Source: Candidatus Bathyarchaeota archaeon
Lineage (GTDB): Archaea; Thermoproteota; Bathyarchaeia; Bathyarchaeales; Bathycorpusculaceae
Direction of reading: 5' to 3'
Length of the DNA stretch: 64,000 nt
Assembly (NCBI GenBank): GCA_026014685.1
Contig: JAOZHW010000005.1
Location: 62,001-126,000, forward strand
Shown here: piece after piece, positions 11,774 through 46,994 of the stretch
Position numbering within the stretch: position 1 is the stretch's first letter
Layout: every line of letters begins with the position of its first letter
Made by a program: the position numbers and the translations under genes
The notes under the pieces: model-generated
The model's database searches: none
What the model was told of the DNA's origin: nothing
Seen by the model: only the letters and a program-made list of their open reading frames with translations

Positions 11774-12080
11774 TAAAATGATTAGAAAACGCTAATTGTT
11801 TATAGCTTTTATTTCGCCACCGACAACAAATCCACAGACGCCACGAATTAGATGTCTCAGAGTCACTGCAGAACCACATGAAAGTGAATTGTATATTCTA
11901 TAAATAAGGGCGGCGAGGTAGCGGCAAAGTAGAAATGTACCTCCAGCTATTGAGGATACGTTTTCGTTTGCGACTTTAAATAAGATGAGTTAGTCACCAC
12001 AGAGGCACACATCAGGGTTTTCCCCCAAGGTTTTTAAAACACAAAAGATTCCTTTTTAATCGACAAAAATCAGCGCAGGA
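11774..12080. other. Intergenic region with a degenerate copy of the G-rich repeat
   Basis: About 300 bases between the small winged-helix gene and the beta-CASP nuclease gene, which point away from each other. It holds the degenerate fourth copy of the TATA/G-rich element (11897-11930). A second promoter-like GACTTTAAATAAG near 11974 may serve the nuclease gene. No other structure seen. Confidence 0.6.
11897..11930 (+). repeat. TATA/G-rich intergenic repeat, degenerate copy
   Basis: Reads TATAAATAAGGGCGGCGAGG followed by TAGCGGCAAAG. It matches the copy at 17704-17744 through the TATA box, the GGG run and GGTAGCGGCA, but lacks the GAGACGTCGCGTG end. It is therefore either a decayed copy or a promoter sharing only the left half of the element. 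Confidence 0.5.
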
Positions 12081-15574: not shown

Positions 15575-16615
15575 ATGGAAGATGCAGAAGTTTGGGTTCC
15601 AGCCGACGGCGACACATTCGTCACTGTAGACGGCTTTATCATGAATACATTAGGCTACGAGCACCCCGACGACAGGGTTTTTGCGTTTTTAAAGTACATC
15701 CCTGCAAAATACAAGGATCTATTTAACGTGGAAATGCTTCAGCGGACCTGGAAATTCGGCTCAAACCCACTCACCAGTCAGCTTTTCCGGGCCGAGAAAC
15801 TCTACACGGCCAAAAACTACCAAACTTTTCTTGAGGCTTTCCGCAAAAACTTCCCAAACTACCTCTACTACGACCAAACACGAGGCAAAGAACTCATCAC
15901 TGCACCGCTTGACAGAATAGAGCAGGTGTTTGTTCCAAAAGACCGCTTGGTCTGGCTTCAAAACCTCAAAAACCCCGATGATTTCCAGAAGATGGCCCTC
16001 GAAGTAATCGACCTGATCCATAAAGAGTCAGGTGTTCCCTACCACGATTTAGGGCTGCATGGCTCGACGGCGTTGGAGATGCATGCCCCCGAATCAGACA
16101 TAGACTTCGTCGTGTACGGCACAGAAAACTTTCGCCGCGTCGAACAAACCCTCCAAATCCTCGCCAACCAAGGCGTAGTCAGCTACATCGCGGGCAACCG
16201 CATAGAAGCCGCACGCCACTTCGTCGGCAAATACAAAGGCAAAATCTGGATGTACAACGCCACCAAGAAACCCGAGGAAATCAAAGGCAAATACGGCGAC
16301 TACACCTACACGGCATTGGCGCCCGTACGGTTTTCTGCAACAGTTTGCGACGATACCGAAACCATGTATCGCCCCGCAGTGTACAAAATCAGCAACTACC
16401 AACCCCTAGACCCCCAATCCGAACTCCCGCTAGAACAAATTCCTATACAGGTCACCTCAAACATCGGTTGCTACCGAAACGTCGCGCGAGCAGGTCAGCG
16501 CATCAAGGTTGCAGGCACCTTAGAAAAAGTTCAATCAACAAGAGACAATTCAGCCTTCTATCAAGTTGTCGTTGGAACAGCTACTTCAGAAGAAGAATAC
16601 ATATGGCCCACCTAA
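15575..16615 (+). CDS. Predicted nucleotidyltransferase (COG2413-like), first of a pair
   Basis: 346 residues from ATG 15575; an upstream TTG-initiated extension has no support. The central part has [19 protein letters not shown], the GS(x)nDxD motif of the Pol-beta-type nucleotidyltransferase fold; the metal-binding aspartates are in SDIDF. A basic, aromatic N-terminal region precedes it and the C-terminus looks like an OB-type strand set ([10 protein letters not shown] to FYQVVVG). The fold transfers NMP to RNA, protein or small molecules; the substrate is unknown. It overlaps the next gene, a clear paralogue, by 13 bases. Confidence 0.85.
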
Positions 16616-17676
16616 AACTACGCGACCGCGACGCCATCCAAGGAGCAGAAGGAATAATTTTCCGTGTTTTCGGCTACAGCCACCCAGCCAACGCCTATCT
16701 CTGTGACGCGGAATATGCCAGCAGCAAAATTTTTAGTTCCGCTGATCCGCGTGCACCACGTGAAGGGCGAAGTGAACTTTTCTACAAATTCTACAACGAT
16801 GAAGGCATGAAACTCGTTGCTAAAAAGTATCCGCAGTACCTTGTTAATCATGAGATGCTTGGGTTGAAACTGGTGGGTGTCCCAAAAGAGCTTATTGCTG
16901 AAGCACGGCAACCGCAGCCCCGATTGCAGGAACTACTGAAGAAAGGAGCGACTGACCCGCTACTGGCAGCAATGGAGCGCGTGCTTGAAGTTGCAACAAA
17001 CAAATCAGGAGTACCAAACGGCAGTTTCGGCGTTTTTGGCTCCATGTTACATGGTTTTCATCACCCAAAATACAGCGACATAGACTTCACAATCTATGGT
17101 AAAGAAGAAAACCGCAAAATCCGCGAAGTCAACTCAGAATTGTATGCTGACCCAACCTCTGGATTAACAAACGAATTTGCTTCAAAGGACTCCATGAAGG
17201 GCAAGCGATGGCTCTTCCAAAACTTTTCCGTCGAGGATTTTGTTTGGCATCAACGCCGCAAATACATCTATGGACTCTTCGACGACCGCAAACACAGTGG
17301 CAGAATCATAAAAGCGGAATTTGAACCAGTCAAAGCATGGAGCGAAATCAAAAACGAATACGACCCAAACGCACGCATACTGCAGAAAGGCTGGGTGAAA
17401 CTAAGAGCACGGGTCACAGCAGACGATGATGGACCCTTTATTCCCTCGGTCTACGGCATTGAACCCTTAGAAGTCCTCAGTGGCCCCACAGAAGCCCTCG
17501 AAGTCGTCCGAGTTTTCAGTTACATGGAAGAGTTCCGCCAGCAAGTCCAACGCGACGAAACAATCATTGTTGAAGGGAACCTTGAAGAAGTGACATCGTC
17601 CAAAGGAAGTTTTCTGCAGGTGACGCTTACCTATTGTCCACGCTATTACGAGCAGGTTCTAAAAGCGCTACATTAA
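16603..17676 (+). CDS. Predicted nucleotidyltransferase (COG2413-like), second of a pair
   Basis: 357 residues from ATG 16603; the frame is open upstream but overlaps the first paralogue. It has [10 protein letters not shown] and [10 protein letters not shown], the same GS...DxD nucleotidyltransferase core, and a similar C-terminal strand region ([18 protein letters not shown]). N-terminal halves also correspond ([14 protein letters not shown] versus [14 protein letters not shown]). The two overlapping genes probably arose by duplication and, being translationally coupled, may form a heterodimer. Both keep the catalytic residues. Function of the family is not established. Confidence 0.85.
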
Positions 17677-17703: not shown

Positions 17704-17744
17704 CACGCGACGTCTCTGCCGCTACCTCCCCTCCCTTATTTAAA
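17704..17744 (-). repeat. TATA/G-rich intergenic repeat, copy 2
   Basis: Read on the minus strand: TTTAAATAAGGGAGGGGAGG then TAGCGGCAGAGACGTCGCGTG, 41 bases. It differs from the 36212 copy at only a few positions. A TATA box at its left end would put a transcript start inside the GAGACGTCGCGTG end, pointing into the 3' end of the nucleotidyltransferase gene as antisense. Confidence 0.7.
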
Positions 17745-17816
17745 GAAGTTACAATGTGTCGAGAAAACTGTGGTTTGCTTTGAACAGAAGAATCAAGTTA
17801 CCATTTGATAGGTTAT

Positions 17817-36097: not shown

Positions 36098-36486
36098 GCA
36101 AGCAACTAAAATACGCGTCCATTCAACTTACAAGTTTTTTGAAGTATTATCTAGTTACGAATTTCTCCACGACAAACACGCAGCCGCCCATAATTTTCCT
36201 TGCTATCCGAGTTTATATAAGGGAGGGGAGAGGGCGGCAGAGACGTCGCGTGTCCCCGCAGATTCAGATATGAATTTGTATGCACCCCTTTTAGGTGCTC
36301 TATAAAAAATCAGACCCCTCAAGGTACCCAACTAAACTGAACAACTTGCCGAAGTCGCCACAACAAGTCTGTAATGCGCCATATTTGCTGACGTTAAATC
36401 GGATGTTTCTGTCATATCCTTTGGGTATAGTTGAAATTAGCGAGCGGGTCACATCAACAACCAAAAGAGCGCCCACTAACAGAGCA
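36098..36486. other. Intergenic region with a G-rich repeat copy
   Basis: 389 bases between two convergent genes. It holds the best copy of the TATA/G-rich element (36212-36252), followed by a short hairpin GCACC/GGTGC (36282-36298). A 71-codon minus-strand frame starts inside the end of amt in another frame but has no support. Nothing else seen. Confidence 0.6.
36212..36252 (+). repeat. TATA/G-rich intergenic repeat, copy 1
   Basis: TTTATATAAGGGAGGGGAGA then GGGCGGCAGAGACGTCGCGTG, 41 bases. A perfect archaeal TATA box, a G-rich spacer with three runs of three or more G, and a 16-base end shared exactly with two other copies. A transcript from the TATA box would start near 36242 and read toward a hairpin at about 36282-36298, antisense to the amt 3' end beyond. 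Confidence 0.75.
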
Positions 36487-46594: not shown

Positions 46595-46994
46595 TTTTTG
46601 GCTCCGTTATTCGTTTTTTTAGCACTTACTCTATTTACTGGTTGATTATCCAGAAAAATACTCAGTATGCTAATATATATTGTGTTCTCAGTGCAAATAC
46701 TGAAAATATGTTCCTGAAAATTTTGTTCGATACTTTACGTTGAGGTCTGTTGCTTTTTTTGGTCCCGCTCTTTTAATGGCGCAAAAGAAGCCTTATCCGT
46801 AACGCTGGGGCACGCGACGTCTCTGCGGCCCTCTCCCCCCTATATAAAGAACAAATGATGACGCCACAGGAAAGCATCTATGAGCCATGCACGCGGATTG
46901 GGGCAAACCCTACAAACGAAAAAGAGAAACCTGACCTGATTTTTCCAGTGTCTGCAAAGCGGTTTTTTGACGCAGAAATAGGAGGTGATTAGCT
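46595..46994. other. Intergenic region with a G-rich repeat copy
   Basis: 400 bases. It contains the third good copy of the TATA/G-rich element (46811-46849) and a TATA-like AATATATATTAG before the kinase gene on the minus strand (near 46670-46681). A possible 19-codon plus-strand frame at 46880 is noted but not called. Confidence 0.6.
46811..46849 (-). repeat. TATA/G-rich intergenic repeat, copy 3
   Basis: On the minus strand: CTTTATATAGGGGGGAGAGG then GCCGCAGAGACGTCGCGTG. The 15 bases GCAGAGACGTCGCGT and the TATA box match the other copies; the G-rich spacer is three bases shorter. It points toward the kinase gene that starts at 46594. Confidence 0.72.

What the first reader, a model, noticed from the sequence alone, without database searches (positions are those of the whole stretch)
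36212..36252. Family of 38-41 base intergenic repeats: TATA box, G-rich tract, GCAGAGACGTCGCGTG
Copies at 36212-36252 (plus), 17704-17744 (minus) and 46811-46849 (minus) share a TATA box, GGGAGGGGAG-like spacer and the exact end GCAGAGACGTCGCGTG; a degenerate copy is at 11897-11930. All are intergenic, flanks are unrelated, and they do not point consistently at genes. They could be promoters of a small RNA family, a global regulator site, or a miniature mobile element. The G runs could form a quadruplex between TATA box and start site. I know of no described archaeal element with this form.
Basis: seen in the sequence. Interest (0 to 1): 0.65.

Follow-up and report, generated by a model that had tools for sequence, protein, structure and literature searches.

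The report
Archaeal intergenic repeats at chromosome breakpoints
A Bathyarchaeota genome carries over a hundred copies of a 42-base DNA tag between its genes, and when two related species are compared the chromosome has been cut and rejoined at these tags far more often than elsewhere, so they look like swapping points for rearranging the chromosome.

Summary
The three window copies are three of 66 exact copies of a 13-base core in the genome (reversed control 0), and about 112 copies lie in the 664 kb read here. The unit is 42 bp: CTTTAWATAAGGGAGGGGAGGT, seven variable bases, GAGACGTCGCGTG. It is intergenic and randomly oriented to genes, often followed by a hairpin arm. Among 31 other species of the genus, 8 to 10 carry it (two searches), with other cores (GAGCAACAG...); no other genus searched has it. 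Comparison with the nearest carrier, G018, is the main result. Sites are shared: 59 of 83 mapped flanks have an element there versus 10 of 126 controls, 56 of 59 in the same orientation. Two core types swap at shared sites. Gene order breaks there: neighbours stay together at 72 of 91 junctions without an element, but 4 of 28 with one (p = 8e-10). Three of four window copies sit on such breaks. Best reading: dispersed recombination sites for rearrangement and gene conversion; enzyme unknown. A promoter of small RNAs remains possible, because TATA-to-GAG spacing is fixed; no transcript data exist. REP/RAYT is disfavoured: no Y1 transposase found in G000, G018 or G012.

The parts
36211..36252 (+). 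Element copy 1: TATA-like box 36212-36219, G-rich tract 36221-36232, variable seven bases 36233-36239, core GAGACGTCGCGTG 36240-36252
   Evidence: collinear in relative G018, which has an element with a different core at the same place
36253..36313 (+). Right arm of copy 1 (decayed hairpin arm and second TATA-like motif)
   Evidence: HMM match to position 100
17704..17745 (-). Element copy 2, 42-base form only; core 27 nt after the stop codon of the convergent gene 16345-17676
   Evidence: left and right neighbours lie in different G018 contigs; six other species have another neighbour there and no element motif
46751..46849 (-). Element copy 3 with right arm; core 46811-46823
   Evidence: synteny break against G018 (C17 | C14), core side conserved
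11898..11991 (+). Degenerate full-length element copy (TATA-like box, G-rich tract, decayed core, hairpin arm, second TATA-like motif)
   Evidence: HMM E = 1.5e-7; A side maps to G018 C14, core side to C10

Best explanation
The 42-base unit is one copy of a lineage-specific family of dispersed intergenic sites at which the chromosome recombines. Shown: over 100 copies in the genome; shared sites between two species; matching orientation; interchange of two core types at shared sites; strong excess of synteny breaks at the copies, with a flank on the A (TATA) side of one element found joined to the core side of another. Inferred: crossovers (inversions, excisions, translocations) and short-tract conversion take place inside the copies, promoted by a recombinase reading the two conserved blocks on either side of the seven-base gap, with a tyrosine recombinase as the likeliest enzyme class. 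The enzyme is not identified.
For: Copy number and control (112 matches in G000 pieces, 0 in reversed sequence). Sharp conservation limits: bases -29 to -8 and 0 to +12 near 2 bits, the seven-base gap near zero in its middle, flanks near zero (the core columns were used to select copies). Adjacency conserved at 72 of 91 junctions without an element and 4 of 28 with one in both genomes, Fisher 8e-10; with intergenic gap 100-800 bp held equal, 24 of 32 versus 4 of 24. DNA-level test: elements 7 collinear, 17 rearranged; other intergenic points 55 and 12, p = 4.7e-6. Polarity kept in 56 of 59 flank links. Examples: a G018 element joins the A flank of G000 C5:274.9k to the core flank of C5:263.4k, the product expected from an 11.5 kb inversion; G000 C5:196.6k flanks map to two G018 elements. 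Core types differ at 19 of 56 shared sites. Precedent in archaea: integrase-driven inversions in Thermococcales, where native homologous recombination had been detected with 500 bp or more of identity (PMC5495485).
Against: No full reciprocal pair of junctions was recovered. Six of eight elements with both flanks closely traced are collinear. Gene order is scrambled across the genus, also in species without detectable copies, so elements are not the only route. The arms around the seven-base gap are not inverted repeats, unlike standard tyrosine recombinase sites, and recombined sites need not share the gap sequence. Integrase counts do not follow element counts. The association could arise because rearrangements are tolerated there.
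Confidence: 0.52

Rival explanations
1. Promoter reading: the unit is a TATA promoter that starts a small or antisense RNA at GAG; the two core types are alternative RNA 5' ends, and rearrangement at the copies is a side effect of repetition.
For: TATA-like TTTAWATA lies 28 nt before GAG in 69 of 73 copies, close to the archaeal TATA-to-start distance (general knowledge), and the spacing is nearly kept in other species with other G tracts and cores. The hairpin arm has weak covariation.
Against: No transcript data. Orientation to genes is random. Cores often sit within 15 nt of the stop codon of a convergent gene, leaving no RNA of its own. No purine-rich BRE upstream of the TATA box, and the region between TATA and start is G-rich instead of AT-rich. 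No Rfam match in the window.
Confidence: 0.2
2. Miniature mobile element: non-autonomous insertions scattered by a transposase or integrase; shared sites are old insertions, and homologous recombination between copies produces the breaks.
For: Patchy occurrence within one genus and subfamilies per species; copies absent from ancestral junctions, e.g. next to the gene ending at 17676 in six species; a 1.6 kb unit with a tyrosine recombinase gene ends at an element in two places.
Against: No terminal inverted repeats; no clean empty site with target duplication found; most mapped sites are shared between G000 and G018; conservation has sharp blocks with a free gap, not uniform decay; Y1 transposases absent from G000, G018 and G012.
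Confidence: 0.18
3. Protein-binding boundary site (chromosome organisation or transcription insulation): the element marks places where rearrangement is tolerated but does not take part.
For: Almost always intergenic, fixed sites, two conserved blocks with a free spacer.
Against: Core type swaps between copies and element flanks keep their polarity across breaks, which point to exchange within the copies; excess of breaks remains after matching intergenic length.
Confidence: 0.08
4. Assembly artefact: short-read assemblies joined at repeats create false breaks.
For: The genomes are draft assemblies (G018 a metagenome assembly); contig C20 ends in inverted element copies.
Against: Only 11 of 112 copies share an exact 50-mer with another copy and 6 a 60-mer, so ordinary reads span them; the changed neighbour beside the gene ending at 17676 is seen in both G000 and G018, with different cores.
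Confidence: 0.04

Closest known systems
Thermococcales chromosome inversions by plasmid integrase IntpTN3 (Cossu et al. 2017, PMC5495485)
   Same: Archaea; frequent rearrangements with breakpoints at short dispersed sequences; recombination outcome like homologous recombination on short DNA
   Different: There the breakpoints shown lie in tRNA genes or unrelated sequences and the enzyme is known; here a dedicated repeat family of about 100 copies and no known enzyme
REP / BIME repeats with RAYT transposases (PMC2817692, PMC3733652)
   Same: High-copy short intergenic repeats, lineage-specific, mosaic composites, subfamilies differing between species
   Different: Obligatory unit is not a palindrome, carries a TATA-like box and G-rich tract; no Y1 transposase in G000, G018 or G012; PMC3733652 lists bacterial phyla for GTAG/CGTC repeats
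Prokaryotic MITEs (review PMC10969869)
   Same: Short non-coding, intergenic, multi-copy, patchy occurrence
   Different: No terminal inverted repeats or target duplications seen; most mapped sites shared between two species
Archaeal TATA promoter
   Same: TATA-like box about 25 nt before a conserved GAG
   Different: G-rich spacer, no purine BRE, random gene orientation, conserved 13 bases beyond the putative start

Membership tests
REP/BIME with RAYT | Many short intergenic copies per genome | tested here: met
   66 exact cores, 112 HMM matches in 664 kb, nearly all intergenic
REP/BIME with RAYT | Palindromic (hairpin) unit | tested here: not met
   A hairpin arm scores 14 of 23 or better in only 35 of 73 copies; the 42-base unit alone is not palindromic
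REP/BIME with RAYT | Cognate Y1 transposase | tested here: not met
   PF01797: 0 matches in G000, G018 and G012; present in several species without copies. Some REP genomes have lost it, so not fatal
MITE | Terminal inverted repeats | tested here: not met
   Consensus ends of alignment A1 are not complementary
MITE | Target-site duplication and empty sites | tested here: inconclusive
   Ancestral junction without element seen for one site, but the neighbour also changed
Site-specific recombination site (tyrosine recombinase) | Binding arms around a 6-8 base crossover region | tested here: inconclusive
   Two conserved blocks around seven variable bases
Site-specific recombination site (tyrosine recombinase) | Arms are inverted repeats | tested here: not met
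   GGGAGGGGAGGT and GAGACGTCGCGTG are not inverted copies (sequence)
Site-specific recombination site (tyrosine recombinase) | Cognate recombinase acts on it | not testable with these tools
   PF00589 genes occur in all 32 genomes; activity needs experiment
Archaeal promoter | TATA box at fixed distance from start | tested here: met
   28 nt from TATA to GAG in 69 of 73 copies
Archaeal promoter | Transcript starts there | not testable with these tools
   No transcript data
Archaeal promoter | Points at a gene | tested here: not met
   All four orientation classes about equally common

The most novel reading that the evidence does not exclude
A dedicated archaeal site-specific recombination system uses about a hundred chromosomal sites, each with two conserved blocks around a seven-base crossover gap, to reshuffle gene blocks across the whole chromosome and to exchange core sequences between sites.
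Probability: 0.17. Interest if true: 0.88.

Novelty: new variant of a known kind. Interest (0 to 1): 0.62.

Why it matters
If the copies are the crossover points, they explain at base level why gene order diverges so fast between two close species, and give a countable set of sites with which to test how archaeal chromosomes rearrange. Interchange of core types at fixed sites gives a rare view of concerted evolution of dispersed short repeats. Even if they prove to be small-RNA promoters, they would be an undescribed family in an uncultured group.

Tried and rejected
Rfam scan of the window: no match; no tRNA genes. RNA structure: hairpin arm has 3 of 8 pairs with changes on both sides, weak against shuffles. 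Viral contigs: no match to the element and no relative of the 414-aa integrase. Common function of flanking genes: window flanks are unrelated (beta-CASP nuclease, nucleotidyltransferase-domain protein, Na/H antiporter, ammonium transporter, sensor protein, HIT protein). RAYT model: no Y1 transposase in the three species tested. Integrase number as predictor: does not follow element number. An apparent reciprocal exchange between G000 C3:5.5k and C7:538.6k was checked base by base and dropped: the C7 break is 900 bp from its element. Restriction of exchange to sites with the same seven bases: partners differ. G-quadruplex: too few G runs.

Full report
Observation. The window is G000 C5:62001-126000, a 2.32 Mb genome in 23 contigs. 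The core GAGACGTCGCGTG occurs 66 times exactly in the genome while the reversed pattern occurs 0 times; 14 more places have one mismatch, mostly GAGAGGTCGCGTG.

Anatomy. From the fetched copies the unit is C TTTAWATA A GGGAGGGGAGGT N7 GAGACGTCGCGTG. Information is near 2 bits through the TATA-like box, G-rich tract and core, falls to near zero within the seven-base gap, and drops at both ends (copies were chosen by core, but a search by the left block alone finds the same family, with 121 matches up to three mismatches against 2 in the control). The distance from the TATA box to GAG is 28 nt in 69 of 73 copies. About half the copies carry a right arm: RTTCCAGCAGGTGC, a hairpin GCGGATACG-NNNN-CGTATGCGC, and a second TTTAAATAAGGGG motif; some continue to +264 through another repeat that also occurs on its own. 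The window copy at 11.9 kb is a decayed full-length form.

Context. In 664 kb of G000 read here there are about 110 copies. They are intergenic in nearly all cases and their orientation to both neighbours is random. Cores often lie within 15 nt of the stop codon of a convergent gene.

Distribution. In 31 other species of the genus the exact core is found in only one, G018. A covariance model finds relatives of the element in ten (G005, G006, G007, G009, G012, G015, G018, G022, G024, G029), and the pattern TTTAWATAAGGGRRGG in eight; no other genus tested has either. Other species use other cores after GAG: GAGCAACAG, GAGAGC, GAGACGGGTAGGTC. A scan of 84,980 species genomes finds the left block only in Candidatus Bathyarchaeota assemblies; titles identify contig sets whose lengths match G018 (JAMDCQ01, FK_Sedi) and G012 (PLNS01, fen_992). 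Genus naming is not given by the tools.

Shared sites. Flanks of G000 elements were mapped to 886 kb of G018. With an HMM covering both core types, 59 of 83 informative flanks have a G018 element within 700 bp, against 10 of 126 flanks of intergenic control points; 56 of 59 have the same orientation. So most mapped copies are fixed sites older than the split. At these sites the core type is the same in 26 links, switched between the two types in 19, and unclear in 11 (the classes are simple text patterns). The window sites at 17.7, 36.2 and 46.8 kb are examples: G018 has GAGCAACAA-type elements in the same place and orientation.

Breakpoints. Adjacent genes stay adjacent in G018 at 72 of 91 junctions without an element, but at 4 of 28 with an element in both genomes; for intergenic gaps of 100-800 bp the figures are 24 of 32 and 4 of 24. 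A separate DNA-level test gives 7 collinear and 17 rearranged element sites against 55 and 12 for other intergenic points. In the window, the elements at 11.9, 17.7 and 46.8 kb separate blocks that lie on different G018 contigs, and the one at 36.2 kb is collinear. Joining of flanks of different elements is seen directly: a G018 element joins the A flank of G000 C5:274.9k to the core flank of C5:263.4k, as an inversion between these two facing copies would; G000 C5:196.6k joins flanks of two G018 elements; G018 joins the A flank of C7:338.8k to the core flank of C7:371.9k, the junction of a circle between direct copies. No complete reciprocal pair was found, partly because about half of G018 and over two thirds of G000 were not read.

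Ancestral state. Six other species have another gene beside the window gene that ends at 17676, tail to tail in four of them with overlapping stops, and no element motif at that junction. G000 and G018 both lack that neighbour there and both have an element, with different cores and different far flanks. The element thus accompanies a derived junction. The same search shows that gene order is scrambled throughout the genus, also in species without detectable copies.

Mechanism. Shown: fixed sites, conserved polarity, core interchange, excess of breaks, joining of flanks of different elements. Inferred: crossovers and conversion inside the unit. Native archaeal homologous recombination was detected with 500 bp or more of identity in Thermococcus (cited in PMC5495485), while only 11 of 112 copies share an exact 50-mer with another; this argues for a dedicated or promiscuous recombinase, by analogy with IntpTN3. 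A candidate, not a demonstrated partner, is a 414-aa tyrosine recombinase (PF00589, E = 4e-11) in a 1.6 kb unit present twice in G000 (91.7% identical) that ends at an element in both places. With 13 integrase matches in G000 the link may be chance, and no copy was found in the G018 DNA held.

Alternatives and membership are set out in the fields. The promoter reading is the strongest rival because of the fixed TATA spacing. The REP class fails on the palindrome and on the transposase; the MITE class fails on terminal repeats.

Verdict. The association with breakpoints is strong; the causal mechanism is moderately supported.

Noticed in passing
L216:1341-2958 (G000 C1:206.3-208.0k) and L090 (G000 C22:115.3-116.9k): Duplicated 1.6 kb unit with a 414-aa tyrosine recombinase gene about 95 bp from an element, reading away from it; homology ends about 8 nt after the core. 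A different integrase lies 367 bp from the element at C23:51.3k.
   Followed up: partly
L087:1-5340 (G000 C20): A 5.3 kb contig whose two ends are inverted copies of one element with its flank (153 bp, 99% identical); an assembly palindrome or a real inverted pair.
   Followed up: no
window:36487-37804: Ammonium transporter gene is split into two overlapping frames, so a frameshift or a sequencing error.
   Followed up: no
window:39656-43876: 4.2 kb present in G000 but absent from the collinear place in G018 (C17:17.7k).
   Followed up: no
L055 and L072, about +100 to +264 from the element start; L342 (G018 C17:20.3-22.0k): A second intergenic repeat (CCACAACCAGC ... GCTGGTTGTTG, TTTTTGATCTACTG) often adjoins the element, on either side or inverted, and sometimes replaces its left end.
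   Followed up: partly
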